A stretch of DNA of 16,530 nucleotides, from contig JACKBM010000076.1 in NCBI GenBank assembly GCA_020634575.1, positions 1 to 16,530 of the forward strand. The letters run 5' to 3'. This stretch comes from Ardenticatenales bacterium. GTDB taxonomy: Bacteria > Chloroflexota > Anaerolineae > Promineifilales > Promineifilaceae. The notes below the pieces were generated by a model. That model had not been told where the DNA came from and did not search any database. It worked only from the letters and a program-made list of their open reading frames with translations. Position numbers and translations under genes: made by a program. Position 1 is the first letter of the stretch. Each line of letters opens with the position of its first letter. Positions 1-16,485 of the stretch are shown one piece after another.

Positions 1-2715
1 GCCATCGCGGCCGGAGGTGAAGACGAGCCATTGGCCATCGGGCGAGAAGGACGGGGCGGTGTTGCTGGCGGTGTCTGTGAGCTGGCGGAGCTCGCCAGTG
101 GTGAGGTTTACCAGATAGATATTGCGACTGCTGGCGGGACCGGCATAGAAGGCCAGCCATTGGCCGTCCGGAGAAACATCGCTACGACCACCGATGGAGG
201 GGACGTTGGTCAGGATGGGCTGGCGCTCACTCCCATCCGGCCGGATCAGCACATGCGTATAGCCACCCTCCGAGCCCTGCAGCCACTCCGCATAAACGAG
301 GTGCTCCCCATCCGGCATCCAGACCGGATCGACAGCGTCCCCTTCGACAAAAGTGATTTGCTGCGGGTCGCTGCCGTCACGGTTCATCAGCCAGATATTT
401 TGCATGCCGGCGCTGGAACGGACAAAGGCGATTTTTGTGCCGTCCGGCGAGATGGCCGGGGCGTAATCGCCGCTGCTGGATTCGGTGAGCTGGCGCCAGT
501 CGTTGCCCAGCAGGTCGTACAGGTACAGGCTAAAAACGCCCGAGCGGCTGCTGGAGAAGATGATTTCGTTCAGCTCAGGCGCAAAACTGGCGTACCAGCT
601 CGTGGCGGGGAAATCTGTGATCTGCACGGATTCGCCAGTGGCCGCATCGATCAGGCAGAGCTGATCCAACCCGTCGAGGAAGCAGGTGAAGATGATGGGA
701 CCGGCCGGTGGAGCCACAAACTGCGCTGGCGGCGTAGCGGAAGGCGCCACGGTGGCCACCGCAATGGCCAGCTCCGTGGCCTGCTGGGCGCTCAAGGGCA
801 TGGCGGTGGCACGCGGTGTCCGGCTGGGGGTGGCCGTGCTGGCTGGCGCCACGGTGGCCACCGGCGTCGCTGTGACGGCCGCAGCGGCAACGGCTGAGGG
901 TGTATTCGCCGCTTCTGGACCCGCCCAGGCGGTTAACTCGGGATAGTCAGCGATACGGTCGCGCAAGGCAGCCTGTAGTTCCGGGCTGCTGTTCAGGAGA
1001 GCCGCAGTCTGCGCCTCCCAGTCTGGATGCTCTCCGGCAACAAATTGCAGCTCGGCCAGGGCGGTTTCCAGATCTTGTAAGGCCAGCGCAACCTGGGCAT
1101 TTTCCAGCCGAGTGGCCGGGTTGTCGGGTGCCAGCCGTAGGGCCACGGCGTAGTCGATGCGGGCCGAATCCAGCTCGCCATTCAGCGCCGCACTGCGTCC
1201 GCGCAACCAGCTGTTGATCTCGACCTGGAGCGGGCTGGCCTGCTCTGTTTCGCCGACGGCCAGGGCGGCGGCCATCGCCGCCAGGACGTCGCTGCCTGGT
1301 GCGGCGGTGCGGATGTCTGACTCGTACAGTGTCTGATAGAGGTGCTGGATTATCTCGGCGATGGGCGGATCAAGATCGGCCGGCACGTCACGAAAGAGTT
1401 CGACTTGCTCAGATGTCGGTAACGCCGCGAAGGCTGTCTGTCCGACGGTTATATGGTCGGGCAAGAGCAGCAGATTGCCGAGGGCATTGAGGCGGATTGT
1501 CGGGTTGGTGGCGTCGCTGAACTCTTGCAGGTAGGCCTCAGCCAGCAGATCGTCTGCGCTGGGCCCCGGCCGGTAGAAAATGGTAATGAGGCAGGCCGCC
1601 AGCAACACCAATCCAACTAACAGCAAAGCCCGATTGGGTTGGCGCGGGGCGTGCAGACGGAGCCAGGTCTCATCAAAACTGTGTCGATAAATTTCATTGC
1701 GCACGTGGAGCTGGTGTTTGTCATTAACGCTGACCAGGCCATATAGGCGCAATTCTGTTTGCAGTGAATCACGCTCATCGGCAGTCACGGGCCGCCGCCC
1801 TGTGCGTACGCGTTGATAGAGTTGCAGCAGCGCATTGCGCTGCGGGCTGTTGAGGATGCGGCCGGCCACAAACTGAAGGTTGCTCTCCTGCAAATGGGCC
1901 TGGTCGGTCAGGAATAATGATTTGACGAGCTGATCAACTGCCGCGGCGTCAGCGGCCGGCGCCGGCAGGTTACTCAGCGCCTGGCCCAGCTTTTGGGTGA
2001 GGTAAGGATGGCCGTTGGTCCAGTGATAGATGCGCTCGATGGCGGCGGGCGCGTAGCCGGGCAGGCCGGCGCTCAGCATGGCGATGGTTTCCGCTCGGGG
2101 CAGTTCGGCGAGCTGAATACGTTGGCCGACGTTGAACGGGGTCCGGCTATTGTCGCGAATCAGGTCGTTAGGCGCGGCCACACCGAGCAAGACCAGCGAA
2201 AGCGGCGGCTCGGCCTGGCGACTGACGCTCCAGTTGTGGATGGCGCGCAGGGTGGCGAAAAAATCGTCGGCAAAGGGCAGGCGCAGGACGCTGTCGAGTT
2301 CGTCAAAAAAGAGGACAACCGGCCGGTGCAAGGCCCCCACCAACTGCTCCTGCACAAAGCGCAACAGCCGCCTTTCCGGCGTTAGCTGGGCCCGGGCCTC
2401 CCACCAGCCGTCCAGATCCATATCGAGGTCAAGCTGGTAGCAAATGTCGTCCAGCAGGCTAAGGTACCAGGCGTCGGGCTCAGCGGTGCCGAGGGCAGTG
2501 AGGTCGCTGATGGCGGTCAGCCAGCCTTCAGCAGCCAGTTGGCGCGAGGTCTGGTTCATCAGGCTGGATTTGCCCATCTGGCGGGTGGTCAGGATGTAGG
2601 CGAGCTGGCCGGAACGGGCCACCTTCAGGAGCTCATCGTCAGCCGGCCGGCGCACATAGGAGGGGGCTTCGGGATGCAGGGTGCCGCCGGCGGTAAAGAA
2701 GCTTGGCTGGGCCAT
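1..2715 (-). CDS. Membrane AAA-like ATPase with TPR-like region and TolB/WD40-like propeller (partial, C-terminus outside window)
   Basis: The frame is open for 905 codons from ATG at 2715 to position 1. Residues 6-51 carry the hallmark of AAA-like (AAA_35) NTPases: FFTAGGTL, then PSYVRR, then the P-loop RQMGKSS (about 45-51). Walker B is VLFFDELD near residue 137. A C-terminal part ending DETWLRL closes the ATPase region. One hydrophobic helix follows (about 360-378, ALLLVGLVLLAACLITIF). Arginines on its N-terminal side suggest ATPase inside and the rest outside. Next come a helical, TPR-like region (about 490-590), a Thr/Pro/Ala linker (about 600-665) and at least four propeller blades with SPDG motifs (SPDGTKIAFV, MPDGEHLVYA, SPDGQWLAFY, SPDGQWLVFT). 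It starts 5 bp after the upstream ATPase gene with no clear ribosome binding site, so coupled translation is likely. Role unknown; a sensor or scaffold NTPase is an inference. Confidence 0.88.
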   Translation of the reverse strand, partial: MAQPSFFTAGGTLHPEAPSYVRRPADDELLKVARSGQLAYILTTRQMGKSSLMNQTSRQLAAEGWLTAISDLTALGTAEPDAWYLSLLDDICYQLDLDMDLDGWWEARAQLTPERRLLRFVQEQLVGALHRPVVLFFDELDSVLRLPFADDFFATLRAIHNWSVSRQAEPPLSLVLLGVAAPNDLIRDNSRTPFNVGQRIQLAELPRAETIAMLSAGLPGYAPAAIERIYHWTNGHPYLTQKLGQALSNLPAPAADAAAVDQLVKSLFLTDQAHLQESNLQFVAGRILNSPQRNALLQLYQRVRTGRRPVTADERDSLQTELRLYGLVSVNDKHQLHVRNEIYRHSFDETWLRLHAPRQPNRALLLVGLVLLAACLITIFYRPGPSADDLLAEAYLQEFSDATNPTIRLNALGNLLLLPDHITVGQTAFAALPTSEQVELFRDVPADLDPPIAEIIQHLYQTLYESDIRTAAPGSDVLAAMAAALAVGETEQASPLQVEINSWLRGRSAALNGELDSARIDYAVALRLAPDNPATRLENAQVALALQDLETALAELQFVAGEHPDWEAQTAALLNSSPELQAALRDRIADYPELTAWAGPEAANTPSAVAAAAVTATPVATVAPASTATPSRTPRATAMPLSAQQATELAIAVATVAPSATPPAQFVAPPAGPIIFTCFLDGLDQLCLIDAATGESVQITDFPATSWYASFAPELNEIIFSSSRSGVFSLYLYDLLGNDWRQLTESSSGDYAPAISPDGTKIAFVRSSAGMQNIWLMNRDGSDPQQITFVEGDAVDPVWMPDGEHLVYAEWLQGSEGGYTHVLIRPDGSERQPILTNVPSIGGRSDVSPDGQWLAFYAGPASSRNIYLVNLTTGELRQLTDTASNTAPSFSPDGQWLVFTSGRDG
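743..863. repeat. 19-bp in-frame direct repeat in the Thr/Pro/Ala linker
   Basis: The 19 bases at 743-761 recur exactly at 845-863, 102 bp (34 codons) apart and in the same reading frame of the minus-strand gene. Each copy encodes VATVAP. The linker between the TPR-like region and the propeller probably grew by internal duplication; this is a coding repeat, not a mobile element. Confidence 0.75.
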
Positions 2716-2720: not shown

Positions 2721-4169
2721 TTAGCTAAATTCCCGCGCCAGGTAGTCGCGATAGAGGTCACAGCGCCAGCTCTGGTCCTGGATGAGGCCGGTCATTTGCA
2801 GCCGGTAGCGCAGTTCCAGGCTGTTGATGCTCTGCCTGCCTAGCTGCTCAGCAACGGCGGCGGCCAGGTCCGGGTCGGCTGAAATGAGCCGGCCGAGATG
2901 GTGCAGGTGCGGGGCAAAGGGGCTGTGTGGCGCGAGGGCGCCGGCCTGCAGTTCGGCCAGGCTAAGCTGGCGGGTAACGAGTTCGTATAGCGCCGAACGG
3001 GTCAGGAAGGGATGGCCGTGCAGCCAGTCAGAAAGTTGGGCTAACTCTGACGCTGCCAGGGGAGCGCCGTAGCGATTGTGCAGATCAGTGATCTGTGCCT
3101 CATCAAAGTCTGTCAGGACCAGGTTGAGGCCAACATTGAAGGGCGATTGGTTCAGGTCACTGATCAGGACATAGGGCTCGGTTGAGATAGCCATCAGCAG
3201 GGTGAAGCGTTGCCAGGTGGCATGGACCGAGCGCCGGTTGTGCCAGGAACGCAGCAGGCCAAAAAAGTCGGTGGCAAAGTCGCAGGGCAGGAGCCGGTCC
3301 ACCTCGTCGAGGGCCAGGGCCAGCAGAACACCATCCTGCTGTAGGGGCCCTTTTTCCAGGAAACGGGTGGCCTTGCGGCTGGGGCTGCTGCCACCCTGCC
3401 AGGCGGCGTCAAGCTCGGCCTGGTCGTAATCCAGTTCATCACAGATCAGGTTGAGGAGAAAGTAGAGGAAGCTATCCAGCGACACGAGTTGTTCCTGGCC
3501 GGCGCTCTGGACATCAACGTAGACGATCTCATAAGCCGGGTCGCGGCGTAGCTGCTGGATGCCGCGAATCAACAATGAGGTCTTGCCCACCTGGCGCGGG
3601 CCGCTGATGGTGACCGTGCGACCGGGAAAGCCCAGCTCCTGGGCCAGTTGGGCGTCGCAGGCGCGGCGAACATAAAAGGGATCATCGGGCAGCAGGGCGC
3701 CGCTGGGAAAGCTCAGGGGGGCGATGGGTTGGGCCTGCCGTGGCTGCCCTTCCCAATCCTGGAGGAGTTGGGCCAGCATCGCGATGGCTTCGCGGAGGGC
3801 CTGGTAATACTGGCCCCCTTCCGCCAGGCCAACGCGGGCCTGGACTTCATGCTTGGGCAGGTCGCGCGGATAAAGCAGGGTGAGCAGGGCGTAGGGGCGC
3901 CAGGCCAGCTCCAGCCAGCGGAGATCAGCTGCTTCGCTGGGCACATCTGCCGCCGGCGCCAGCGCCTGGATCGCTTCGCGCAGGATCATTTGCAGGGCGA
4001 GACCGCGCCCGCGGATGTCGTCAGGCAGATCGGCGCTGGCCAGTTTCTGCTGGATGAGCCTGTCTGTGGCCAGTTGGGAGCGGCCGAGGGCGACCGGCCG
4101 GTGCCACGCTTTCAACGCCTGGCGTACCGCCTTGTGCCATTGGTCGGCTGAGAGCATTTCCACGTCCAT
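2721..4169 (-). CDS. HTH-containing P-loop AAA-like ATPase with C-terminal winged helix
   Basis: 482 aa from ATG 4169. The frame extends to an ATG at 4286, but those 39 extra residues (Arg/Cys-rich, no recognisable domain) look like translated upstream sequence. Residues 1-140 form a helical region ending in a sigma-r4-like HTH pattern: a Leu/Tyr-rich helix, then GLAEGGQYYQALREAIAML. The ATPase core has GPRQVGKTS (Lys196), Walker B LALALDEVD (Asp288), and NQSPFNVGLNL, which resembles RTPFNVGQRIQL in the neighbouring ATPase. It ends with a winged-helix-like tail (YRLQMTGLIQ...LYRDYLAREF). No membrane segment is seen, so it should be cytoplasmic. It lies 5 bp before the membrane ATPase, in the same operon. 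The two cores are related, suggesting old duplication or partner ATPases. Substrate and biological role are unknown; transcription control or a STAND-like switch is possible. Confidence 0.85.
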   Translation of the reverse strand: MDVEMLSADQWHKAVRQALKAWHRPVALGRSQLATDRLIQQKLASADLPDDIRGRGLALQMILREAIQALAPAADVPSEAADLRWLELAWRPYALLTLLYPRDLPKHEVQARVGLAEGGQYYQALREAIAMLAQLLQDWEGQPRQAQPIAPLSFPSGALLPDDPFYVRRACDAQLAQELGFPGRTVTISGPRQVGKTSLLIRGIQQLRRDPAYEIVYVDVQSAGQEQLVSLDSFLYFLLNLICDELDYDQAELDAAWQGGSSPSRKATRFLEKGPLQQDGVLLALALDEVDRLLPCDFATDFFGLLRSWHNRRSVHATWQRFTLLMAISTEPYVLISDLNQSPFNVGLNLVLTDFDEAQITDLHNRYGAPLAASELAQLSDWLHGHPFLTRSALYELVTRQLSLAELQAGALAPHSPFAPHLHHLGRLISADPDLAAAVAEQLGRQSINSLELRYRLQMTGLIQDQSWRCDLYRDYLAREFS

Positions 4170-4175
4170 GCCAGG

Positions 4176-4181
4176 ATCGTA
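4176..4181 (-). promoter_or_regulatory. Candidate -10 box (TACGAT) giving a leaderless ATPase mRNA
   Basis: On the minus strand TACGAT is followed by six bases and then the ATG at 4169, so transcription would begin at or next to the start codon. No good -35 box is visible 16-18 bp upstream and no Shine-Dalgarno site precedes the ATG, which would fit a leaderless transcript. Weak evidence. Confidence 0.25.
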
Positions 4182-4326: not shown

Positions 4327-4373
4327 ATTCGACCCGGCCGGCCCATTGGCTGGCCGGGTCGAGTTCGTTTTTT
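4327..4373 (+). promoter_or_regulatory. 17-bp hairpin plus T-run in the leader of the macroglobulin gene
   Basis: Bases 4327-4343 pair with 4348-4364 (17 pairs, two of them G-U in RNA) around the 4-base loop CATT at 4344-4347. Six T residues follow at 4368-4373. This is the form of a rho-independent terminator, but it sits 12 bases before the ribosome binding site of the gene it precedes, with no plus-strand gene upstream. It may be an attenuator or a stop for stray upstream transcription. The stem contains one copy of the genome word CCGGCCGG, so part of the palindrome may come from that word. No convincing -35/-10 pair was found upstream. Confidence 0.55.
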
Positions 4374-4375
4374 CT

Positions 4376-4380: not shown

Positions 4381-4385
4381 AAAAG

Positions 4386-7300
4386 ATGGAAAGTCGTGGT
4401 AAACCCCTCATCTGGCTGGTGTTGAGTATGATGGGCCTGGTGCTGCTGTTGGCATCGCCGGGTAACGGTGCTGGGCCCGCCGCGGCAACGCCCACTGCGT
4501 TAGTTGTCCAGCCTGACGGTGTGGCTGCGGCAACGGTGCAGTTTGCGGTGCCGGAGGTAGAAGAGAGCGGGCTCAGGTTGATTGGGCAGCAACCGGCCGC
4601 AACGGCTGAAATGGGGCTGGACGAGCCCCTGGAAATCTACTTCAGCCAGCCGATGGACCAAAATGCCACAGCAGCGGCATTTTCGTTGCATGATAGCTCT
4701 GGCCAGGCGGTGGCCGGACGGGTTAGCTGGCCCGCCAGCAATGTCCTTCATTTTGTTCCGGACCAGGCCTACAAACAGGCGACACAGTACCGGGCCCAGG
4801 TGGCGCGGAGCGCACGCAGCCAGAGCGGCCTGCAATTTGCGGAACCAGTGTCGGTGGCGTTTCAAACTGTTGGCGATCTGGCGATTGCGCGGGTGTTTCC
4901 GGAGTCTGGTGCGGAGAATGTAGATAGGCAGGCAGCGGTGACGGTCATGTTTAACCGGCCGGTCGTCCCCCTCACCTTTTCGCCGGCGCAGGACGATCTG
5001 CCAGCGCCATTCACTATCATACCCGCCGTGGCCGGAACGGGGCGCTGGCTCAACCCGGCTGTTTACAGCTTCACGCCGGCCGAGCCGTGGGTAAGTGGGG
5101 CAAGCTATCAAGTCGTTGTGGCCGGCGGTCTGTTATCTGTGCAGGGCGTGGCTCTGGCCGAAAGCTACGCCTGGCAGTTCAAGACGACCGGCGCTGCCGT
5201 GCGTGATGTTATCTTGCGCCTGGACAATCAGCGGACAACGGCGAATGCGACCGGCGTTCGGCTGGATGAAAGCCTGGCGATACGCTTTTCCGTACCAATG
5301 GACCCGTTGACGACAGAAGCGGCCCTTGCGGTGCGCCGCCTGGGCAGTAGCCAGCCGGTGCCGCTGACCGTTGCCTGGGACGAGACGGGGCAAAATGTGG
5401 TGATCACGCCGACCGTCCGGTTGGCCCTGGACGCCCGCTACCTGTTCACGGTGGCGGAAACTGCGCGCGCGGCCGACGGTGGGGGCATGACTGATGGCTA
5501 CAGCTGGAGCTTCCGCACGGTTGGGGAGCCATCGACCCATAACCTGGAGCCGGCGCCCGCGACAGTACAGGCAGAGTTTAGCTCAGTTTTCAAAGTTGCA
5601 TTTGTGTCGCCCATGGCTGCTGAAACGGTGCTGAATCGGATTATCATCGAACCGGATCCGCCGGAGCAGGCTGAGTGGTGGGTCTCCTATGATGGCCGGA
5701 CATTTGGCTTTGCTGGCCTGAAGCCATCCACAGAGTACCAGGTCCATTTTTTGCCGGGAATGGAAGATGTCTGGGGCAACGTCATCAGCGGCGAGAGACA
5801 ATACAGTTTTACGACTGCGGGTCTCCGGCCTTATCTATACATTCGTGACAAGGGTGCGCCGGCGCTGGTCAGCCAGCAAGGACCGCAGCGGCTTTACCTG
5901 ACGATGGCCAATGTGCCACGCGTGCATCTCTCGCTTTACCAGTTGACGCCCGAGCAGTTCAGTTTGCGTTATACCGATGTTAACGCCGAGCCGGTGAATG
6001 GTGAGTTGCTGCGCCAATGGACCGTCGCGCCTGGCCTGGCCCAGGATACGCCCGGGATTCGCTATTTCCTGCTGCGATTGGCAGGCGGGGAGCCGTTGCC
6101 GACCGGGTTTTACCGCGTCGTCGTCGATTCACCGGACCATCCGGCTGCATCCTCCACACAGGATACGCTCGACTTCTTTGTCGCCACGACAAATCTGATC
6201 ATCAAGAGCAGCGCCTCGCAGAGCTTGATCTGGGCCACCGACCTGGTTACTGGGGAGCCAGTAGCGGGTTTACCAATCCGGCTCTTTGATCAGGGGATGA
6301 AATTGCTGGCGACGGGGCAGACTGATAGTTCCGGCCTGGTGACGTTCGAGGAACTGCCGCCTCTGGAAAGTTATCGGGAGTCGCGGATTGCGCTGGCGGG
6401 TGAGGCGGATGGTGATTATCGCGGGCTGGCCTACAGCCATTATTCCTACGAGCTGTACCCCAACGGCGTGGGTATTGATACCGATTTTCTGTATCAAACC
6501 GGGCAACCGCTGGTGTATTTATATTCGGACCGGCCGGTCTACCGCCCCGGTCAGCCCGTTGCCTTCAAAGGCATCATGCGCATTGACAACGACATGGCCT
6601 ATGAACTGCCCGGACCGGGCAGCGTTGTCGCGACGGTGCGCTATTTTGGTCAGGATATCTCACGCCAGGTGTTGCGCCTGTCGGCTACCGGTAGCTTCAC
6701 TGGCAGTCTGACATTGCCGGCTGATGCCCTGCCCGGAACCTATACCCTTTTCGTCAGACCTATGGGCTCGGCGGCGACGATTGGCAATCTTGCCTTTAGC
6801 GTGGCGGCCTACCAGAAACCAACTTTCAGCGTGACACTCCATAATGAACAGCCCGATCGGCTGCAAGGCGACAACGGGACGGTTACGGTACAGGCTGATT
6901 ACTATGCCGGAGGCTCCCTGAATCTGGCTGAGGTGACCTGGCATCTTGATGCCAGTGAGCAGCCTTTTCTGCCGCCGGAGCCGTACCGGGATTACAGCTT
7001 CTGGACTGGCGAGGGGCGCCCGGGTTACTGGCGCTGGCGCTGGCGTGGCCGCTATGTCTACCCGACCATGTTGGCATTTGGCTCAGCGGTAACAAACGAA
7101 CAGGGCCAGGCCATTCTGGACATTCCGATCCGGCTGGAGCAGTTCAATGCTGATCAGCAGCTGACCCTGCAGGTGAACGTCACTGATTTTGCCGGCCGTA
7201 CGGTAACCAGCCGCACGATTTTCCGGGCCCATCAGAGCGAACTATATCCTGGCGTGCGCCCTGAAAGCTATGTAGCGTCGGTGGCGTCACCCGTCGGAAT

Positions 7301-10300
7301 TGACCTGGTTACCCTGGACATGGCGGGGCAGCCCCTACCTGAACAGGCGCTGCGGGTTGAACTGTTCCGAGTGGAGCGGCACAGCGTCCGCACATTTGAT
7401 GAATTTGGCCGGGCTTACTGGGAAACCACGAGCGAAGAGGTCCTTGTTGGCGAACTGACGGGAGTTCAGACCGATGATCAGGGAGTAACGAGCACAGATT
7501 ACAGTTTTGCCGAAGCAGGTCTGCATCTGATCCGGGTCACCGGCCAGGATCAGTATGGCAACAGCGCTGTAGCCGAGAATTATGTCTGGGTTGTGGCTGG
7601 CGACTATGTCTCCTGGGGGATGCGCAACAATTTTGCGATGGATTTGATCCCGAATCAGACGGAATTTGTGCCTGGGGAGACGGCGCAGATCCTGATTGCG
7701 TCGCCATTTCCGGGCGAGCATTATGCCCTGGTGACCGTGGAGCGTGGGCAGGTACGGCACAGCGAAGTTATACAGGTTGCCGGCAGCGACACTGTTTATG
7801 AATTACCGCTAACGGCAGCGTTGGCGCCCAATGTTTATGTGTCGGTTGTGGTTTTCAAGGCAGCGGGGGATGCGGCCGGGGCGGATATGGCGATCGGTTG
7901 GACGGAGTTGGCCGTGGCGCCGGCGCAGTTCGAGTTGCAGATTGAGCTGGCGGCCGACCGGCCGGTTGCCGGCCCCGGCGAAACGGTGACCTATGAGATC
8001 CAGGTGCTGGATCAGACCGGCAATGGGGTAGCGGCCGACGTCTCCCTGGCGCTGGTGGACCTGGCCGTCGTTTCCCTGGTAGAACCCAATAGTGCCCCGA
8101 TTTTTGAGTTTTTCTATCGACCGCGGCGGCTGGCGGTGCAGACCGGCTCGCTGCTTACAAACAATCTCGATCAGCTTTACGAGGAACTGGGCGAAGTGGC
8201 CAAGGGCGGCGGCGGTGGCCCTTCCGGCCAGGGTGTCGTCGATGTGCGCGAGGATTTCCGGGACACGGCTGCCTGGCGTGGCTTTGTCACGACGGACGCG
8301 AATGGGCGGGCCACGGTGACGGTGACGTTGCCTCACAATCTGACCACCTGGCGGCTGGATGTGCGGGCGGCGACGTTGAACCAGTTTGGGCAGGGCACGC
8401 ACGATCTGGTGGCCAACAAGATGCTCTACCTGCAACCGCAAACGCCCTATTTTTTCGTGAGCGGCGACGAAGTGCAGCTGGGCGCCATTGTGCGTAACAA
8501 CAGCGACACGACGCAGACGGTCACAGTCACCCTGGAGCAGAGCGGGTTAAGTTTGCTGTCGCCGGAGGAGCAGCAGTTTGTGATACCGGCCGGTGCCCAG
8601 ATCCTGGCTACCTGGACCGTGCGCGCTGATCAGGCGACCCCACAGGCGGATCTGCTTTTCAGGGTCACCAGCCCCGAATTTAGCGATGCCTCGCGGCCAG
8701 AGACCGGTACCTTATCCGGCGGGGGGATACCGATTCAGCGGCCGGCCGTCCAGGAAACGCAGTTGACCGCTGGCTTACTCACGTCCGCTGGCAGCAGTGC
8801 GGAAGGGGTTTATCTGCCGCCTGAGCTGATGACCTATGAAGGGGAATTGACCATCACCCTGCAACCTTCGTTGCTTCTGGGGCTGCAGGACAGCCTGGAT
8901 TACCTGGAAGAGCAACCGTTCAGCAGCCATGAGCTGCTAGTGTCCCGGTTTCTGGCCAATGTGGCCACGCGGCGCACATTGGCCGCCAGCGCCGCTGGTG
9001 ACCCACACCTGGCTGCCAGGCTCGACAGTGCAATTGAGACAGCGATCGCCCGGCTCTATCGGACGCAGACGCTGGCAGGCGGTTGGGGCTACTGGGTGGA
9101 TGGCCCGCCGCAACCGTTGCTGACAGCTTACACACTCCTGGGCTTGCTTGAGGCCGAGGCCGCCGGCTATGCCGTCAGGGCGGATGTCCAGGCGTCGGCC
9201 CAGGCTTATCTCGAGCAGCAGATGGGGGCGGTGACGCCGCAGCTGTCCACTTATGAGCTGAACCGGATTGCCTTCATCAACTTCGTGCTGGCTCGGGCCG
9301 GCGAGGTTGATGTGAGCACGGCCTCACAATTGCTCCTGGTTGAACAGCAACTGTCGTTATACGCCCGCGCTCTTCTGTTGCAGACATTGCACCATATTGA
9401 TCCGGCCGATCCGCGTCTGCCGGTATTGCTGGGGAACTTGCTGGCGCTGGGCGAGATGTCAGCCCAGGGTTGGCATTGGCAGGAGCTCGAGCCGGACCCG
9501 TGGAATTGGAACAGCGACGGCCGGACCACGGCCATCATATTGCTGACAATCCTGACGATTGATCCAGAGCAGCCGGGTGCGGCTAACGTTGTGCGCTGGC
9601 TGATGAACAATCGGGTCCGCGATCATTGGCACGGTACTCAGGAGACGACCTGGAGCTTGCTGGCGCTGCAGCGCTGGCTTATGGTCCGCGCAGAACTGGA
9701 GCCGGCCTACAGCTTCAGCCTGCGGGTCAATGATGCCTTGCTGGCCGAAGGCGCCGTCACCGATCTGACAGCCGCCAGCTGGACACTCTCCTTAGAAGAA
9801 CTGGGCTCGGGGCCATTGAGCATTGTCGAGATAAGCCGGTCTGAAGGGGCGGGCAATCTTTATTACACGGCGGCGCTGACCGCCCAACTGCCGGTGACGG
9901 CGCTGACGCCGCTCGACCAGGGAATTATGATTGAGCGGCGTTATTTTGCCCTGGACGATCCGGAAACGCCGGTGACGGTGTTGCGGCAGGGTGAAAGCTA
10001 CCTGGCCAGGATCACGCTCATCTCGCCGTACGACCGGCACTTTGTTTTGCTTGAAGATCCGTTACCGGCCGGTGCCAACGCGCTGGACGCCACCCTGCGC
10101 AGCAATCCGTGGCAGCGGACGGGCGGATACCCAGGTTGGGGTGAGCGGACGCTGGCGGGCTGGGGCTGGTGGTATTTTGACCGGGTCACCCTGCTGGATG
10201 ACCGGCTGCAACTGGCGGCAACCTGGTTACCGGCCGGTTGCTACGAATACACCTACCTCATCCGGGCCAACCTCGCCGGCCAGTTCAACCTGCTGCCGAT

Positions 10301-10391: not shown

Positions 10392-12778
10392 AAAGGCGCC
10401 TGCTCCGGCTGAGCCTGGTGTTGATTGTGTCGCTGGTCGCCTTTTTGTACTGGCTTCTCGTCGATCTGCCATCAGTTGACCAGCTGGCCCTGCACGAACC
10501 AAGTATTCAGTTGCTCGATCGGCGCGGCCGCCTCCTGTATGAAAGCACGGTGGGTCGGGCCGGGCGCCATCAACCCGTGTCCCTGGAAGCGGTGCCTGAG
10601 GCATTGATCTGGGCGACTGTGGCCACGGAGGACAGGCATTTCTATGAACATCCTGGTGTCGATCTGCGAGGGGTGTTACGGGCAATCTGGCTCAATCTGC
10701 GTGGACGCGAGGTGGTGGCCGGGGGCAGTACGATTACCCAGCAGGTGGCGCGCAACCTGCTGCTGAGCACCGACGAGCGTCAGGAGCAGACTCTGCGGCG
10801 CAAACTACGTGAAGCGGTCCTGGCCTGGCGGTTAACCAGGACGCTCAGTAAGGATGAGATCCTGCTTCTTTATCTCAACCAGATGAATTATGGGGGCCAA
10901 AATTATGGCGTCGCGGCGGCGGCCTGGAGCTACTTTGGCAAACCAGTGGCGGAACTGGATCTGGCGGAAGCCGCCTTGTTGGCCGGTCTGACGCAGGCGC
11001 CTGGTCTGTATGACCCGCTGCTGGCGCCCGACCTGGCCAAAGCCCGTCAGGAAGTCGTGCTGGAGCTGATGGTCCGGGCCGGTTACCTTGAGGCGGCGCT
11101 GGCGGCCGAGGCGGCCCGTGAACCGCTGCAATACAATCCGGAGCCATACCCGTTTGCGGCGCCGCACCTGGTTGAGATGGCTCTGCAGGAGGTTGAGGCG
11201 TTGCTCACAAACGGCGTACTGACGGCGGAACAGGGGCTGGTGGTGGGCACAACCCTGGACCTGGATTGGCAGCAATCAGCAGAGCAGATCATCAGCTGGC
11301 AGCTGGCTGAGCTGGCCGCTGACGGCGACCATCGTGCCGGCAACGCGGCGCTGGTGGCTCTGGAGCCGGGTAGTGGCGCGGTGCGGGCCCTGGTCGGCAG
11401 TGCGGATTATGGCAATGAGGCGATTGCCGGCGCGGTCAACATGGCGTTGACGCCGCGGCAGCCGGGTTCGGCGCTCAAACCTTTTGTTTACGCCGCCAGT
11501 TTTGACCCGGACCGGCCGGATCCCTGGTCGCCGGGCACCGTATTGCCCGATGTGTTGACAACCTTCACGACTGCCGATGGTGACCCTTACGTGCCGGTCA
11601 ACTTTGATCGGCAGGAACATGGTCCCGTGGCCATTCGTGAGGCGCTGGCGGCCTCACTGAACATCCCGGCGGTGGTGGCGCTGGCGCATGTCGGTCTGCC
11701 CCGTTTTCAAGCATTGGCGCTTGATCTGGGCCTGAGCACGCTGGCGGACCCTTTTGATTATGATCTGGCCATTGTGTTAGGGGGTGGCGAGGTGACGCTC
11801 CTGGAGCTGACGGGCGCTTATGGTTCCCTGGCGAACGGTGGGTTGGCGACGACCCCGTACGTCATCGAGACGATTCGGGATGCTGACGGGCAACTGTTGT
11901 ATTCGGCGCCGGCAGCGGTCAGTCAGCGCGTTATGGACGAACGTGTTGCCTGGCAGATCAGCGACATCCTGGCTGATCCGTATGCCCGTACCCTGTCGTT
12001 TGGCCGTTACAGCATTTTGCAAATTGACCGGCCTGCCGCCGTCAAGACCGGCACCACCAACGACTTCCGCGACAATTGGACGGTGGGCTACACGGCGGAG
12101 CTGGTCGTGGGGGTCTGGGTGGGCAACGCCGACTATACGCCCATGCGCGATCTGACCGGCGTTTCCGGCGCGGGTCCCATCTGGCATCATTTTATGCGCG
12201 CGGCCCTGGCTGATTGGCCGCCGAACGTGTTCAGGCGCCCGGATGGGCTGGTTGAGGTGGAATTGTGCGCGCTATCTGGCTTGCTGCCTGGACCTGACTG
12301 CCCCTATCGGCGAGTTGAATGGCTTTTGCCCGAGCAGATTCCCGTTCGTCACGACGACTATTATCCGGTTGCTGCGGCTGATGGGCCGGTGGCCGGCGGG
12401 GTAGCTGGCTTAAATCTGCCCATGGCCCTACAACCCTGGGCCAGGCAGCAAGATCTGCTGTTGAGTGATTTGCCAGCCGGTGGTGAGGTGGGCGACCTAC
12501 GGTTAACGGCGCCGGTGCCGGGGAGTGTCTACGAGATCAGCCCAGAACTGCCGTTGGCCGCCCAACAGCTCCGGCTGGCCGCCGGCGGTGTCACGGCGGC
12601 TGGTGTGCTGACGTTTTGGGTAGATGGGGAAAGGGTGTGTGAGTTGAGCAGCCCACCTCATGAATGCTGGTGGCCGCTAGCAGCTGGCGCGCACCGCATC
12701 TGGGCCAAAACGGAGCTGCCTACCGGAGTCAAGGCCGCCAGCCCTCCCATCCACATCCAAGTCAACCCACCCCCGTAA
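10388..12778 (+). CDS. pbpC: Penicillin-binding protein 1C (bifunctional glycosyltransferase/transpeptidase)
   Basis: 796 aa, a normal length for PBP1C. One N-terminal membrane anchor (about residues 5-25) places the enzyme outside the cytoplasmic membrane. The GT51 domain has all key motifs: ATEDRHFYEHPG with catalytic Glu81, GGSTITQQVARN, RKLREAVLAWRL, and LLLYLNQMNYGGQNYGV. The transpeptidase domain has SALK (nucleophile Ser361, Lys364), the SLN motif and KTGTTNDFRDNW (Lys553). The tail (about 710-790; APVPGSVYEI, VDGERVCEL, PLAAGAHRIWA) matches the PBP1C-specific C-terminal domain. It polymerises and cross-links peptidoglycan. The start codon overlaps the macroglobulin stop (ATGA), so expression is coupled; this gene pair is well known, for example in Escherichia coli. 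All catalytic residues look intact. Confidence 0.96.
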   Translation: MKRRLLRLSLVLIVSLVAFLYWLLVDLPSVDQLALHEPSIQLLDRRGRLLYESTVGRAGRHQPVSLEAVPEALIWATVATEDRHFYEHPGVDLRGVLRAIWLNLRGREVVAGGSTITQQVARNLLLSTDERQEQTLRRKLREAVLAWRLTRTLSKDEILLLYLNQMNYGGQNYGVAAAAWSYFGKPVAELDLAEAALLAGLTQAPGLYDPLLAPDLAKARQEVVLELMVRAGYLEAALAAEAAREPLQYNPEPYPFAAPHLVEMALQEVEALLTNGVLTAEQGLVVGTTLDLDWQQSAEQIISWQLAELAADGDHRAGNAALVALEPGSGAVRALVGSADYGNEAIAGAVNMALTPRQPGSALKPFVYAASFDPDRPDPWSPGTVLPDVLTTFTTADGDPYVPVNFDRQEHGPVAIREALAASLNIPAVVALAHVGLPRFQALALDLGLSTLADPFDYDLAIVLGGGEVTLLELTGAYGSLANGGLATTPYVIETIRDADGQLLYSAPAAVSQRVMDERVAWQISDILADPYARTLSFGRYSILQIDRPAAVKTGTTNDFRDNWTVGYTAELVVGVWVGNADYTPMRDLTGVSGAGPIWHHFMRAALADWPPNVFRRPDGLVEVELCALSGLLPGPDCPYRRVEWLLPEQIPVRHDDYYPVAAADGPVAGGVAGLNLPMALQPWARQQDLLLSDLPAGGEVGDLRLTAPVPGSVYEISPELPLAAQQLRLAAGGVTAAGVLTFWVDGERVCELSSPPHECWWPLAAGAHRIWAKTELPTGVKAASPPIHIQVNPPP

Positions 12779-12872: not shown

Positions 12873-12890
12873 ACTACGGCGCGTCTCTAC
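12865..12890. repeat. 13-bp tandem repeat overlapping the inverted repeat
   Basis: GGCGCGTCACTAC (12865-12877) is followed directly by GGCGCGTCTCTAC (12878-12890), then by a decayed third unit beginning GGCGACGTCACTGCC. The units share the GGCGCGTCTC core of the neighbouring inverted repeat. The stop codon of the minus-strand racemase gene (12889-12887) lies inside the second unit. Confidence 0.7.
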
Positions 12891-13540
12891 GGCGACGTCA
12901 CTGCCAACACACAACTGCGGGGACTCGACAACACGGGAATGCCCAGATCGGCCAGCAGGTCGGCCGCGCCGGCCATGGAGGCCTGGGCGAGCAGGATGGC
13001 CGCTGGTACGGTGGCGCTGTGGTCAAGTTGGGTGCGGATGGCGTTGGCGATGGCATGATGGTAACCGGCCGGATCCCCCGCCTCAAAAAAGGCCCACGCT
13101 CCCGTACAGGCCAGCGTGTCGACCTGCAGCGCCCGGTTTTGCCGCGCTGCTTCGTCGGCCAGGAGGGCGCTGGTGGGGGCCAGTGTGCTTTCCAGGGCAG
13201 CGACGAGCAAGATGGGGCCCAGGGCGACGGCCTGGGCGGCCATCGGCCGGTCTACCCGATGGATGGGCAGGCCCAGGGCCTCCCCGTGCTGTTCAGCAAT
13301 TCCGCCGATGGTAGAACAGGTGCAAACGATCTGGCTGGCGCCAGCTTCTTTCAACTGCGTCAAGTGTGACTGGAGTTGCATCAGGATGCCAGGCGCGTCT
13401 GGCCCATTCTGCCGGGCCTCGGCCAGCAAAGGCTCGTCGACTTGATGAATCGCTTGCCATTCCGGCGCCAGTTCCGCCAGCAGCGCTGTAAAAGTGGGGA
13501 CGTGCACAGGTGATGTGTGCAGAAAGCCTATGGTTGGCAT
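12887..13540 (-). CDS. Asp/Glu racemase-superfamily protein
   Basis: 217 aa from ATG 13540, preceded by GAGGGTGG about 5 bases upstream. The frame extends to 13621, but that start lies inside the upstream gene and adds residues unlike the family. The fold signature MPTIGFLHTSPVHVPTF, the site IVCTCSTIGG (Cys75 aligning with the first catalytic cysteine) and PVLSSPRS identify the superfamily of Asp/Glu and hydantoin racemases, maleate isomerase and arylmalonate decarboxylase. Where racemases usually have the second cysteine (GCxGM) it has LLAQASMA, so a classic two-cysteine racemase is doubtful. Cys210 in SPRSC is the only late candidate. It is a cytoplasmic protein, probably co-transcribed with the hydrolase 46 bp upstream; that gap is AT-rich and could hold an internal promoter. 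Its last residues and stop codon come from the 13-bp repeat. Substrate unknown. Confidence 0.85.
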   Translation of the reverse strand: MPTIGFLHTSPVHVPTFTALLAELAPEWQAIHQVDEPLLAEARQNGPDAPGILMQLQSHLTQLKEAGASQIVCTCSTIGGIAEQHGEALGLPIHRVDRPMAAQAVALGPILLVAALESTLAPTSALLADEAARQNRALQVDTLACTGAWAFFEAGDPAGYHHAIANAIRTQLDHSATVPAAILLAQASMAGAADLLADLGIPVLSSPRSCVLAVTSP

Positions 13541-13586
13541 TGGCCCACCCTCGGGTAAGAAAATATTAAATTGTATCGTTTCATAC

Positions 13587-14492
13587 TCAGTAGTTGTTGA
13601 AATGTTTGACAAGGTCGCCAATCAAATCGACCCAGAAGGCCGCGGGCAAAGTATGCCCTAAACCGGCGATGATACGCAAGTTGGCTGTGGGGATCAGCGC
13701 TGCTGTGTCGATGGCATGTTCGACGGGGATCAGCGGATCATGGTCGCCGTGAACCACTAACACCGGCTGCGTGAGTGTGCGTAGCTGCTCGCGGCGGCTG
13801 GTACTCATCAGGAGAGTGGCTAGCTGGCGCACAACGCCTGCATCATTGAGGCCACGGTGGAAGGCCAGCGTGGCCCGGCGGCGCACCGCATCGCTGGCAA
13901 AAGGATAACGGGGGCCAGATAGCAGCTCGGAAATCGTTGCCATCTGCACACAGTAATCGTCGAGGTTATCCGCCAGGGGGGCAAATAGCTGGCTGACCAG
14001 GCTAAAGCCAGGCATTTTGATGGTCATGTCTCCGGCCGAGGACATGAGCGAGGCCAGCGTCTTAACACGTTCCGGCTCAGCGGCGGCCATGAGCTGGCCA
14101 ATCATCCCGCCCAGACCAATACCGACGACGTGGACCTTTTCCAGGCGCAAGTAGTCAAGCAGGCCCAGCGCATCTTCGGCCATGTCATCCAGGGTGTAGC
14201 CGATGCGGACCCCGGTGCCAACCAGGAAGGCGGCCGCCAGGGCAAAGCGGCTGGGGGGATCGTGGTGAAGCCAGCTGGAGCGGCCCATATCCCGGTTATC
14301 AAAGCGGATGACCCAATACCCCATCACCGCCAGCTGTTGGCAGAATTGGGCATCCCAGCCAAGCATCTGCTGGCCAAAATCAGCGATCAGCAAGATGGCT
14401 GGATCGCGGGGATCGCCGAAGGTCTCGTAGCAGATGTTGATGTCACGCAGTTCTGCTTTGACACCGTTAAATGTTAGCTGGCTTTCAGTCAT
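13587..14492 (-). CDS. Alpha/beta hydrolase-fold protein with Gly in place of the nucleophile Ser
   Basis: 301 aa from ATG 14492. The in-frame ATG at 14555 is rejected because it sits within the candidate -10 box and adds an unrelated basic stretch. The sequence follows esterases of the aclacinomycin methylesterase/MhpC type: VIRFDNRDMGRSS, TLDDMAEDALGLLDYL, the acid in HGDHDPLIP (Asp252) and the histidine in GLGHTLP (His280). The nucleophile elbow, normally VVGxSxGGMI, reads VVGIGLGGMI, with GGT (Gly126) where the serine should be. The acid and base residues are kept and the reading frame is undamaged. It may be a non-catalytic binding protein, or use another mechanism. No signal peptide is seen, so it is cytoplasmic. 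It is first in a probable two-gene operon with the racemase-family protein. Confidence 0.9.
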   Translation of the reverse strand: MTESQLTFNGVKAELRDINICYETFGDPRDPAILLIADFGQQMLGWDAQFCQQLAVMGYWVIRFDNRDMGRSSWLHHDPPSRFALAAAFLVGTGVRIGYTLDDMAEDALGLLDYLRLEKVHVVGIGLGGMIGQLMAAAEPERVKTLASLMSSAGDMTIKMPGFSLVSQLFAPLADNLDDYCVQMATISELLSGPRYPFASDAVRRRATLAFHRGLNDAGVVRQLATLLMSTSRREQLRTLTQPVLVVHGDHDPLIPVEHAIDTAALIPTANLRIIAGLGHTLPAAFWVDLIGDLVKHFNNY

Positions 14493-14553
14493 GGCTCGCC
14501 GTTTCACTCTGTTGTACCGGCCGGTCCTGGCTTCCCCCAAGTGACCTGCCGTC

Positions 14554-14583
14554 ATTGTAATCAGGCGACGGTTGTCAACGCAA
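14554..14583 (-). promoter_or_regulatory. Candidate promoter of the hydrolase-racemase operon
   Basis: On the minus strand: -35 TTGCGT (14583-14578), an 18-base spacer, -10 TACAAT (14559-14554, five of six consensus bases). It would start transcription about 55 bases before ATG 14492. A better -35 sequence, TTGACA, overlaps it but is only 13 bases from the -10. Confidence 0.4.
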
Positions 14584-14622: not shown

Positions 14623-14661
14623 CGGGGAAATTCGGCCAGGATTGGCCTATGGAGCAACAAA

Positions 14662-16485
14662 ATGAAGCCTCTGGACCTGTCTGAAAATGCCCCCTGGAAA
14701 AAACGCTACACTGTCCCACAGGCGGTTTGGGCGACGGTGGCTGCCGGCAACCCGGCGCGCGGGCTTGTCTGTCACAATCGCACGGGCAAACTGCAGCTGT
14801 ATAGCTGGGAGACGGCCTCCGGCGCCCTGACACAGTTAACGGATCGGCCCAAAGGGCAGCAAGTCGGCGTCATCGATGCAACGGGTGAATTCATCTATTA
14901 CTTGCAGGATCAAGCTGGTAACGAACAGGGCCATTTTGTGCGGGTGCCCTTTGCCGGCGGTGAGCCGCAGGATATCACACCGTCGCTGGCGCTCTATTCC
15001 TCCTGGCAGATCAGTACGTCCGCCGCTGGCAGCCACCTGGGGTTTGTCGCTTCCGGACGCGAAGGGTTTAAGCTGATGGTGCTGGAGCAGGCCGCTGATG
15101 GCGCCCTGGGCGAGCCGCGCTGTATCTGGACGTCGAAGGCGCTATCAACTGGGCCCTGGCTTAACCATGACGGATCCGTTGCCCTGGTGATGACGACGGA
15201 GCGGTCCGGGCGCAATGCGTATGCGCTGCTGGCGCTGGACACGCGTAGCGGCGCCATCCTCAACGAGTGGGAAGAGGCTGCGGCCAGTGTGTCCTGCGGA
15301 GGGCTGGCACCGGCCGCAGTGGGGCCGCTGGCGGCGGTAACCTGCAACGTGTCCGGGCACCACCGGCCGTTTCTCTGGAACTGGCAAACTGGTACCAGGA
15401 CCCCGATTGAGAGTGAGGAATTTGCCGGTGAATTGCAATGTTTGCGTTTCAATCAGGCTGGTGACGCCTTGCTGCTGCGGGAAGCCTATCGGGCCCAGCA
15501 TCGGCTCTACCGTTATGACCTGTCTGATGGGCGTGTGCGGCGGCTGGCCATTCCTGAGGGTTCCCTCGGCTTTATGGGCGGCGGCGCCTTCTTTATGCCG
15601 GAAGGCGAAATCTGGCTGAATTGGCAATCGGCGACGACACCGGCCGGTGTTATCGCCATTGATGACCAGACCGGGGCCTTTAAGCGAACGGTGCTGGCGC
15701 CGGGCGAAGTGCCGGCGAGCCAGGCGTGGCGCTCGGTCGATATGGAGTCGACGGGGGGCGCGCTCATTCAGGCCTGGGTGGCGACACCGGCCGGTACTGG
15801 CCCCTGGCCGCTGATCCTACACACCCACGGTGGGCCAACTTCAGTGATGACCAATGCGTTTCACGCGGAAGCGCAGGCCTGGTTAGATCACGGTTTTGCT
15901 TTTATGAGTGTCAACTACCGCGGCTCTATCACCTTCGGCAAGGCGTACGAAGAGGCGATCTGGGGCAACCTGGGTGATTGGGAGATCGACGATATGGCGG
16001 CGGCGCGGGCCTGGGCCGTGGCCAATGGCATTGCCCAGCCAGATGCTGTCCTGCTGATTGGCGGCTCTTACGGTGGCTACCTCACGTTGCAGGCGCTGGG
16101 GCGCCGGCCGGAGTTGTGGGCCGGCGGCATGGCCGATGTGGCCATCGCTGATTGGCGTCTGATGTATGAAGATCAGGCTGAGACCTTGCGCGGGTACCAG
16201 CGGGCCCTGTTTGGCGGCGGGCCGGAAACGGCCGGGGCCGCCTATGACAAATCTTCCCCAATCACCTACGCGGCTCAATATGCCGCGCCGCTGCTGGTCC
16301 TGCAGGGGCGCAATGACAGCCGCTGCCCGGCCCGGCAGATGGAGCAATTTGAGGCCAAGCTAAAGGATCTGGGTAAAACGATTGAACTGCAATGGTTTGA
16401 TGCCGGCCATGGTTCCTACGAGGTGGCCGAGCGCATCGATTTCCAGGCGCGCCGGATGGCATTTGCTTACCGGATCCTGGGCTAG
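14662..16485 (+). CDS. S9 family (prolyl oligopeptidase-type) serine peptidase
   Basis: 607 aa. The start is supported by GGAG at 14651-14654, 7 bases before ATG. Residues about 20-360 form a beta-propeller that gates substrate size in this family. Residues about 370-607 are the alpha/beta hydrolase catalytic domain: HTHGGPTS, the oxyanion region VNYRGSITFGKAYEEAIWG, nucleophile Ser469 in GGSYGGYLT, Asp552 in QGRNDSRCP and His583 in DAGHGSYE. All three catalytic residues are present. The length fits acylaminoacyl-peptidase and dipeptidyl-peptidase-like members. There is no signal peptide or membrane helix, so it probably degrades small peptides in the cytoplasm. It is divergent from the hydrolase-racemase pair across a 169-bp region and appears monocistronic. 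The exact peptide specificity cannot be read from the sequence. Confidence 0.95.
   Translation: MKPLDLSENAPWKKRYTVPQAVWATVAAGNPARGLVCHNRTGKLQLYSWETASGALTQLTDRPKGQQVGVIDATGEFIYYLQDQAGNEQGHFVRVPFAGGEPQDITPSLALYSSWQISTSAAGSHLGFVASGREGFKLMVLEQAADGALGEPRCIWTSKALSTGPWLNHDGSVALVMTTERSGRNAYALLALDTRSGAILNEWEEAAASVSCGGLAPAAVGPLAAVTCNVSGHHRPFLWNWQTGTRTPIESEEFAGELQCLRFNQAGDALLLREAYRAQHRLYRYDLSDGRVRRLAIPEGSLGFMGGGAFFMPEGEIWLNWQSATTPAGVIAIDDQTGAFKRTVLAPGEVPASQAWRSVDMESTGGALIQAWVATPAGTGPWPLILHTHGGPTSVMTNAFHAEAQAWLDHGFAFMSVNYRGSITFGKAYEEAIWGNLGDWEIDDMAAARAWAVANGIAQPDAVLLIGGSYGGYLTLQALGRRPELWAGGMADVAIADWRLMYEDQAETLRGYQRALFGGGPETAGAAYDKSSPITYAAQYAAPLLVLQGRNDSRCPARQMEQFEAKLKDLGKTIELQWFDAGHGSYEVAERIDFQARRMAFAYRILG

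What the first reader, a model, noticed from the sequence alone, without database searches (positions are those of the whole stretch)
237..15794. A HIP1-like palindromic word, ACCGGCCGGT, saturates the window
CCGGCCGG occurs 17 times; at about 60% G+C roughly one is expected. The decamer ACCGGCCGGT occurs 11 times, where about 0.04 is expected. It appears in genes on both strands, in two codon phases (DRPV-type and PAG-type peptides) and between genes, so protein-level bias alone does not explain it. Cyanobacteria have a comparable highly iterated palindrome (HIP1, GCGATCGC), tied to DNA methylation and repair. A methylase target, chromosome-organising signal or repair-linked word in this lineage would be worth describing.
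Basis: partly seen in the sequence, partly recalled or inferred. Interest (0 to 1): 0.7.

Follow-up and report, generated by a model that had tools for sequence, protein, structure and literature searches.

The report
Genome-saturating palindrome family in Chloroflexota bacteria
A short mirror-image DNA word sits at nearly every place in this bacterial fragment where the proteins allow it, and related bacteria are filled genome-wide with sister words, so an unknown process seems to favour and keep one word across whole genomes.

Summary
The window's genome is not held and no genome counted is rich in its word, so its genome-wide count is untested. The window is Anaerolineae-like. In one Anaerolineae order (56 genomes held) 37 carry a HIP1-like word: ACGGCCGT (28 genomes, up to 15,176 copies), TCGGCCGA (2), GCGGCCGC (1), CGGCCG with free flanks (5), TGCCGGCA (1). 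The window adds a C-flank form of the same core. Fixed-flank resident words fill 59-100% of protein-permitted places, and ACGGCCGT is kept against synonymous change. Occupancy of ACGGCCGT hardly depends on distance to the next word, so the process seems to act site by site. No methyltransferase family searched tracks the words, and in two word-rich genomes no plausible cognate was recognised. New variant of the HIP kind; the responsible gene is unknown.

The parts
700..709 (.). ACCGGCCGGT, in the - strand reading frame 1-2715 (PAG-type)
2318..2327 (.). ACCGGCCGGT, frame 1-2715 - (HRPV)
4093..4102 (.). ACCGGCCGGT, AAA-like protein 2721-4286 - (HRPV)
4954..4963 (.). ACCGGCCGGT, alpha-2-macroglobulin-like protein 4311-10391 + (NRPV)
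6529..6538 (.). ACCGGCCGGT, same protein (DRPV)
7957..7966 (.). ACCGGCCGGT, same protein (DRPV)
8585..8594 (.). ACCGGCCGGT, same protein (IPAG)
10064..10073 (.). ACCGGCCGGT, same protein (LPAG)
10229..10238 (.). ACCGGCCGGT, same protein (LPAG)
14516..14525 (.). ACCGGCCGGT, in the open frame 13587-14555 - but upstream of its likely start codon; the only decamer in phase 1
   Evidence: start inferred from sequence
15639..15648 (.). ACCGGCCGGT, S9 peptidase-like protein 14662-16485 + (TPAG)
15786..15795 (.). ACCGGCCGGT, same protein (TPAG)
237..244 (.). CCGGCCGG with other flanks (T..A)
1566..1573 (.). CCGGCCGG with other flanks (C..T)
2643..2650 (.). CCGGCCGG with other flanks (G..C)
4334..4341 (.). 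CCGGCCGG with other flanks (C..C), upstream of the likely start of the macroglobulin gene
   Evidence: start inferred
11512..11519 (.). CCGGCCGG with other flanks (A..A), in PbpC 10388-12778 +
13065..13072 (.). CCGGCCGG with other flanks (A..A), in the Asp/Glu racemase-like frame 12887-13621 - (Pfam match below its cut-off)
16104..16111 (.). CCGGCCGG with other flanks (G..A), in the S9 peptidase-like protein; lies outside the finding's stated end

Best explanation
ACCGGCCGGT is one member of a family of lineage-specific, highly iterated palindromes in Anaerolineae, most of them built on the core CGGCCG with flanks that differ between lineages. SHOWN in relatives: the words are genome-wide, act at the DNA level (all codon phases, both strands, non-coding too), fill most places that the proteins permit, and ACGGCCGT and free-flank CGGCCG are kept against synonymous change. 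SHOWN for ACGGCCGT: filling hardly depends on how near the next word is. INFERRED: a symmetric word-reading protein acts on each near-match on its own. My choice is a short-patch repair or conversion enzyme that resolves mismatches in near-words towards the word and so also protects finished words; its preference for the bases outside CGGCCG drifts between lineages, which switches the word. Whether it needs a methylated base is open. That the window's own genome is saturated like its relatives is inferred from 12 of 14 permitted places being filled.
For: Family and switching: ACGGCCGT up to 15,176 per genome (G401, control word 183), 28 of 56 order genomes at 437-2101 per Mb; TCGGCCGA 9,414 in G402 and 7,668 in G104; GCGGCCGC 173 in 103 kb of G189 and free-flank CGGCCG in G003, G007, G159, G419, G420 (samples); TGCCGGCA 3,665 in G405. 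In the class draw of 396 genomes none outside that order has more than 430 ACGGCCGT. Occupancy of permitted places: window 12/14, G002 259/299, G410 199/218, G363 26/26, G104 144/202, G402 145/183, G189 152/184, G405 80/136; in these eight the other words tested stand at 0.00-0.12, save the window's CCGGCCGG (19/37), part of its own word. Maintenance: codons inside ACGGCCGT identical in 0.89-1.00 of amino-acid-conserved cases against 0.52-0.87 for the same codons outside, 13 directed comparisons; free-flank CGGCCG 0.82-0.85 against 0.45-0.58, 2 comparisons; word-poor controls 0.89 v 0.83 and 0.82 v 0.72. Site autonomy, 20 genomes: occupancy 0.79 under 50 bp, 0.88-0.91 from 50 to 1,200 bp, 0.86 beyond to the next word. 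Flank preference falls off outward from the core.
Against: No enzyme has been identified. The window's genome is not held, no counted genome is rich in ACCGGCCGGT (highest 20 per Mb against 726 in the window), and PbpC does not settle the window's place. Selection on every site would give much the same conservation. Very short gaps between words are about half as frequent as random in four of eight genomes, and occupancy dips a little under 50 bp. Left and right flanks match more often than independent half-sites would give: ratio 1.23 in G002 and 1.41 in G405 at the first flank, 1.01 in G410. Permitted places are denser for most resident words but not for GCGGCCGC (2.25 per kb in G189; 2.72 in word-poor G413), and ACGGCCGT in G363 (1.43) equals word-poor G413 (1.42), so forced amino-acid change is not general. 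Some gains and losses change 3-5 of 8 bases with quiet flanks, which single-mismatch repair does not predict.
Confidence: 0.45

Rival explanations
1. Selection on each site: the word is the binding site of an abundant symmetric DNA-binding protein (nucleoid packing, segregation, recombination) and losing a site costs fitness.
For: Flank preference graded outward like a protein-binding motif, with some excess of symmetric flanks; strong conservation; lineage-specific flanks would follow the protein's drift.
Against: Would need selection on up to 15,000 sites per genome, including places under 50 bp from the next word that are still 79% filled. No candidate protein was looked for.
Confidence: 0.25
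2. Methyltransferase plus methyl-directed mismatch repair, as Elhai proposed for HIP1: a methylase for the word's core guides repair and the word accumulates until most bases lie within about 1 kb of one.
For: [quoted passage not shown] MutL is found in 50 of 56 genomes here. A 670-700-residue methyltransferase is in 29 of 31 fixed-flank genomes.
Against: Occupancy hardly falls near existing words. That methyltransferase is also in 14 of 19 word-poor genomes and not found in G415 and G141. C5 methylases not found in 14 of 28 ACGGCCGT genomes. In G007 only a Dcm-like C5 enzyme was seen; in G415 none was recognised. CGGCCG holds no adenine, so adenine methylases cannot serve the free-flank words. 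Caveat: genome completeness is not told, and other methyltransferase families were not searched.
Confidence: 0.15
3. Self-recognition or DNA-uptake word, kept by preferential import of kin DNA.
For: Mean spacing of fixed-flank words is about 500-720 bp, of the order of known uptake words (recalled); words differ between lineages.
Against: Words are palindromic; a second word on an imported fragment should add little, yet occupancy near another word stays high.
Confidence: 0.06
4. Codon, amino-acid or base-composition bias.
For: High G+C; in word-poor genomes related words also exceed synonymous shuffles, though less (ACGGCCGT 3.1-fold in G078, CCGGCCGG 5.1-fold in G232).
Against: Synonymous shuffles give 0.60 decamers against 12 and 5.6-13.4 times too few words in eight carriers; other words of like composition are almost unused; several phases and non-coding sites.
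Confidence: 0.02
5. The window is an atypical island; its word is local and says nothing about the genome.
For: No genome with the word at this density was found; only 16.5 kb are available.
Against: Sites are spread over seven frames on both strands; relatives show words of the same build genome-wide.
Confidence: 0.07

Closest known systems
HIP1 (GCGATCGC) of cyanobacteria and its alternate HIPs (TCGATCGA, GGGATCCC, GGCGCC, rCCGGy, GCsGC), Elhai 2015, PMC4390886 (introduction and sections 2.3, 2.5, 2.6, 3.4 read)
   Same: Genome-wide palindrome at about 500-2500 per Mb; a six-base palindromic core (CGATCG there, CGGCCG here) with a favoured flanking base; for ACGGCCGT and TCGGCCGA deviations mostly at the outermost base; word replaced by another in some relatives; low or lost in some.
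   Different: Different phylum and core; three single-base flanks of one core (A, T, G) dominate different genomes of one order and the fourth (C) the window; no matching methylase recognised in some saturated genomes; filling nearly independent of spacing for ACGGCCGT, against the 1-kb saturation of Elhai's model. I measured no cyanobacterial yardstick.
Uptake sequences of Neisseriaceae and Pasteurellaceae (DUS, USS; passages of PMC1939737 seen)
   Same: Short over-represented word thought to spread by molecular drive.
   Different: Here palindromic, with most permitted places filled and hardly any effect of a neighbouring word.
Very short patch repair at Dcm sites (Vsr; recalled, not looked up)
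   Same: A word-reading enzyme pushes near-words towards a palindromic word without regard to other sites.
   Different: Vsr acts on T:G mismatches from 5-methylcytosine; here the preference covers an 8-10-base word. Vsr was not searched for.

Membership tests
HIP1 proper | Sequence GCGATCGC in a cyanobacterium | tested here: not met
   Word is ACCGGCCGGT; PbpC relatives are Anaerolineae
HIP-like words (kind) | Palindrome over-represented many-fold across the genome, hundreds to about 2,000 per Mb | tested here: met
   Genome-wide only for relatives' words; for the window's word over 16.5 kb: 726 per Mb, 87 times an order-2 expectation
HIP-like words (kind) | In all codon phases and outside genes | tested here: met
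   Eight relatives: (non-coding density lower in most, higher in G104). Window: three phases, two sites probably 5' of genes
HIP-like words (kind) | Deviations concentrated at the outermost positions | tested here: inconclusive
   Yes for ACGGCCGT and TCGGCCGA, not for GCGGCCGC (G189) or TGCCGGCA (G405). Window: too few deviations to say
HIP-like words (kind) | A methyltransferase matching the word or its core in the same genome | tested here: inconclusive
   None tracked the words among 56 genomes; some saturated genomes show none recognised. Specificities cannot be read with these tools; none of the six window proteins scanned is a DNA methyltransferase
HIP-like words (kind) | Methylation of the word | not testable with these tools
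   No long-read data
Methyl-directed mismatch repair origin (Elhai model) | Filling stops once a word lies within about 1 kb | tested here: not met
   ACGGCCGT, 20 genomes: occupancy 0.79-0.91 at all distances
DNA uptake word | Bias in DNA uptake | not testable with these tools
   Needs a culture

The most novel reading that the evidence does not exclude
An order of Anaerolineae carries a word-writing system that needs no cognate DNA methyltransferase: a symmetric enzyme converts near-words to the resident word one site at a time, close to completion, changing some amino acids on the way, and small shifts in its reading of the bases around CGGCCG have rewritten whole genomes from one flank to another (A, T, G and, in the window's lineage, C).
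Probability: 0.28. Interest if true: 0.92.

Novelty: new variant of a known kind. Interest (0 to 1): 0.8.

Why it matters
What makes and keeps HIP1 is an open question (stated in PMC4390886, introduction), and the 14 papers that one search lists under its name are nearly all on cyanobacteria. A second phylum with many related words, apparent switches, losses and close pairs of genomes gives a comparative system in which the responsible gene could be found by presence and absence. For several words (ACGGCCGT, TCGGCCGA, TGCCGGCA, ACCGGCCGGT) peptides that permit the resident word are denser than in most other genomes examined, which suggests that a DNA-level process also shifts protein sequence; this would bear on how orthologues are aligned, dated and read for selection in these bacteria.

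Tried and rejected
C5 methyltransferase as the writer: PF00145 found in 26 of 56 order genomes, not in 14 of 28 ACGGCCGT genomes. The C5 enzyme shared by G007, G419, G159 and G078 (66-76% identity among the 30 loci compared) is closest to solved chains 3lx6 and 3me5 and matches NF007772, below its cut-off, and TIGR00675 'dcm'. That these chains are Dcm and that Dcm reads CCWGG is recalled; so it is not an obvious CGGCCG enzyme.

Weak hits of eight genomes were fetched: those in G007 (L166) and G175 (L178) look like RlmL-type rRNA methyltransferases and that in G415 (L168) like a general one, by reading the sequences. A 670-700-residue methyltransferase (L167; permuted motifs; a zinc-ribbon is suggested only by sub-threshold matches) is in 29 of 31 fixed-flank genomes but also in 14 of 19 word-poor ones, in 0 of 5 free-flank ones and not in G405, G415 or G141 (matches at E under 1e-70 counted as present).

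MutL: 50 of 56, in word-rich and word-poor genomes alike. Finding the window's own lineage: 15 chosen, 396 class and 400 phylum genomes (overlapping draws) counted for ACCGGCCGGT, none rich. Placing the window by PbpC: unresolved; window plus the order with G232 and G279 included was rejected (p 0.0003, 53 rows), without those two, with P0008 and fewer outgroups (35 rows), it was not (p 0.55). A cyanobacterial yardstick was not obtained and not pursued. Papers: the listings show no report of such words in Chloroflexota; the library holds open-licence papers only.
Full report
THE OBSERVATION. The decamer stands in reading frames on both strands, in three codon phases (6, 5, 1), and each of its single-base variants occurs 0-2 times. 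Two of the 19 octamers, at 4334 and 14517, lie inside open frames but upstream of the likely start codons; the others are inside genes. Shuffling synonymous codons within each gene, which keeps proteins and codon usage, gives 0.60 decamers on average and 4 at most in 2,000 trials. The proteins permit the decamer at 14 places and it is present at 12; thirteen other decamers tried have 0-11 permitted places and at most 1 used. So the bias acts on DNA.

WHERE THE WINDOW COMES FROM. It encodes an AAA-like protein (2721-4286) beside a similar-looking frame that I did not scan (1-2715), an alpha-2-macroglobulin-like protein, PbpC, an Asp/Glu racemase-like protein (below its cut-off), a hydrolase and an S9 peptidase. 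PbpC's best relatives are Anaerolineae where named, at most 57% identical. No whole genome is held for the window. PbpC puts it on a long branch among Anaerolineae without a settled place; grouping it with the word-bearing order is not rejected (p 0.55), though a set that included G232 and G279, whose PbpC falls elsewhere, was (p 0.0003).

RELATIVES HAVE SISTER WORDS. Eighty PbpC loci from named genomes (the best 80 of 557) were scanned for raised palindromes of 8 and 10 bases: L006 carried ACGGCCGT 47 times in 22.5 kb against 1.05 expected, L003 17 times, L013 6 times. The whole genomes of that order (56 held) were then counted: 28 are dominated by ACGGCCGT, from 2,887 copies (G403) to 15,176 (G401, control word 183), that is 437-2,101 per Mb. 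G405 instead has 3,665 TGCCGGCA and 14 ACGGCCGT. TCGGCCGA reaches 9,414 in G402 and 7,668 in G104. Samples of 4-142 kb for 55 of the 56 genomes (all but G414) show GCGGCCGC in G189 (173 in 103 kb) and, in G003, G007, G159, G419 and G420, CGGCCG at about 3,500-5,100 per Mb without a strongly fixed flank (G003 leans to ACGGCCGT, 514 per Mb over its genome). The other 19 have a weak word, none, or (G414) were not sampled; they are not blank: G232 has CCGGCCGG at 1,000 per Mb in 20 kb, G212 much CGGCCG, and several samples are only 8-14 kb. In the class draw of 396 genomes none outside this order exceeds 430 ACGGCCGT. The window's word is rare wherever counted: at most 20 per Mb in 396 class genomes, fewer in 400 phylum genomes, against 726 per Mb in the window. 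The window thus has a C-flank member of a set whose A, T and G members dominate genomes.

HISTORY. A tree of one penicillin-binding protein from 48 of the 56 genomes puts five word-poor genomes (G296, G078, G413, G123, G046) inside the ACGGCCGT part, beside G382 and G403, the latter with the lowest density, and word-poor G341 likewise; the simplest reading is loss. Sixteen of 45 inner forks are open, so the number of switches is not settled.

ANATOMY. Around CGGCCG one base dominates the first flank in fixed-flank genomes (0.75-0.92 in the five profiled), another the second (0.47-0.63 in four, 0.32 in G002), and less beyond; G405 shows T at 0.67 around GCCGGC. In the window the first flank is C (0.61) and the second A (0.44). 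Left and right flanks match more often than chance in some: ratio 1.01 in G410, 1.07-1.23 in the other four at the first flank, 1.41 in G405, 1.34 at the second flank of G104. So half-sites are not fully independent. Exact ACGGCCGT exceeds a masked order-3 expectation 77-fold in six genomes (493 against 6.4); single variants sit near or below expectation except at the outer base for ACGGCCGT and TCGGCCGA; in G189 and G405 the outer base shows no such excess.

OCCUPANCY. The share of protein-permitted places that carry the resident word is 0.87 in G002, 0.91 in G410, 1.00 in G363 (26 places), 0.71 and 0.79 for TCGGCCGA in G104 and G402, 0.83 for GCGGCCGC in G189, 0.59 for TGCCGGCA in G405 and 0.86 in the window. 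In these eight the other words tested are at 0.00-0.12, save the window's CCGGCCGG (19/37), part of its own word. Word-poor genomes: CCGGCCGG 0.43 in G232, 0.31 in G404, 0.24 in G279; ACGGCCGT 0.24 in G078. In the five free-flank genomes CGGCCG is at 0.57-0.79. Permitted places are denser for the resident word in most cases: ACGGCCGT 1.4-2.3 per kb in three carriers against 0.3-0.6 in carriers of other fixed words and the window; TCGGCCGA 1.75-2.0 against 0.5-1.5; TGCCGGCA 2.3 against 0.65-1.6; ACCGGCCGGT 0.86 against 0.05-0.69. Against this, GCGGCCGC is not denser in G189 (2.25) than in G+C-richer G413 (2.72), G078 (2.36) or G405 (2.35), and ACGGCCGT in word-poor G413 (1.42) equals carrier G363 (1.43). 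So word formation has probably changed some amino acids, but base composition is mixed in. Synonymous shuffles of eight carriers give 5.6-13.4 times fewer words than observed; word-poor genomes also exceed their shuffles, 1.7-5.1-fold.

MAINTENANCE. In ten pairs of ACGGCCGT genomes, 70-94% identical over the aligned DNA, 62-100% of words are intact in the partner against 8-68% of other 8-mers of equal G+C. Restricting to codons whose amino acid is conserved, codons inside words are identical in 0.89-1.00 of cases, the same codons outside in 0.52-0.87 (13 directed comparisons); free-flank genomes 0.82-0.85 against 0.45-0.58 (2 comparisons); two word-poor controls 0.89 against 0.83 and 0.82 against 0.72. 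Polarised with a third genome, gains and losses are equal, 15 and 15 over five trios; the trios share genomes, some sites count twice, one outgroup was poorly aligned, and further sites could not be polarised.

PLACEMENT. In eight genomes the words lie in all three phases, unevenly; outside called frames the density is 0.4-0.9 of the coding density in six, higher in G104, and 0.2 in G007. Gaps shorter than a tenth of the mean are about half as frequent as random in the four ACGGCCGT and TCGGCCGA genomes, not in the other four.

MECHANISM. If the word only had to be near enough to every base, or if one word per imported fragment sufficed, places close to an existing word should stay empty. In 20 ACGGCCGT genomes occupancy is 0.79 under 50 bp (76 of 96), 0.88-0.91 from 50 to 1,200 bp and 0.86 beyond (12 of 14). 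Apart from a slight dip at the shortest range, the process judges each site by itself. A symmetric reader with graded flank preference that pushes near-words to the word, or equally strong selection on each site, fits; I prefer conversion or repair because of the number of sites, but the data do not exclude selection.

METHYLTRANSFERASES. [quoted passage not shown] introduction and sections 2.3, 2.6 and 3.4 also read). Here none of the families searched tracks the words. C5 enzymes were not found in 14 of 28 ACGGCCGT genomes; N4/N6 enzymes are scattered; a 670-700-residue methyltransferase is in 29 of 31 fixed-flank genomes but also in 14 of 19 word-poor ones and in none of the 5 free-flank ones. 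In that small sense it goes with fixed flanks among CGGCCG-word genomes, but the free-flank genomes are mostly one clade. G007 shows only a Dcm-like enzyme and G415 none that I recognised. Assembly completeness is not told; G415 also lacks a MutL match, so its gaps may be missing sequence. PF02384, PF02086, Vsr and NucS were not searched.

STANDING. It works like HIP and I file it with that kind; it is not HIP1. No paper in the listings seen reports such words in Chloroflexota (listings only). The gene responsible, the methylation state, and the count in the window's own genome are the open points.

Noticed in passing
L037 (JANXAH010000174.1), 17.4 kb: TCGGCGCCGA occurs 8 times against 0.07 expected: another HIP-like palindrome with a different core, GGCGCC, in an Anaerolineae genome (G008) outside the 56-genome order.
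   Followed up: no
G159 samples (L237, L238, L333, L338): Four other six-base palindromes are absent from permitted places (GCCGGC 0/176, CGATCG 0/157, GGCGCC 0/179, CAGCTG 0/274) while CGGCCG fills 236/297: looks like broad palindrome avoidance with one word spared.
   Followed up: partly
G189 samples (L229-L232, L322, L087): A second palindrome, GCCGCGGC, is raised (24 against 3.3 expected) beside the resident GCGGCCGC.
   Followed up: no
L167:1276-3297:- and relatives L179-L208: A 670-700-residue DNA methyltransferase-like protein with permuted motifs, weakly related to DUF1156 proteins, is found at E under 1e-70 in 43 of the 56 order genomes; function unknown.
   Followed up: partly
G242, G261, G401 alignments: Four word gains or losses differ at 3-5 of 8 bases while the 40 flanking bases differ at only 2-4, as if words change in one step; small numbers.
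   Followed up: partly
samples of G159, G189, G409, G415, G410 and G405: GCCGGC, the core read inside out, is nearly missing (0-50 per Mb) in five word-bearing genomes, and the reverse holds in G405 (CGGCCG 108, GCCGGC 2255 per Mb); many other ACGGCCGT genomes have 500-1,500 per Mb, and the window has 2782 CGGCCG and 2601 GCCGGC.
   Followed up: no
window 1-4286: Two neighbouring - strand frames look like related AAA proteins; the first runs past the window's edge and ends in a repeat region that looks like a beta-propeller (only 2721-4286 was scanned; the rest is my reading).
   Followed up: no
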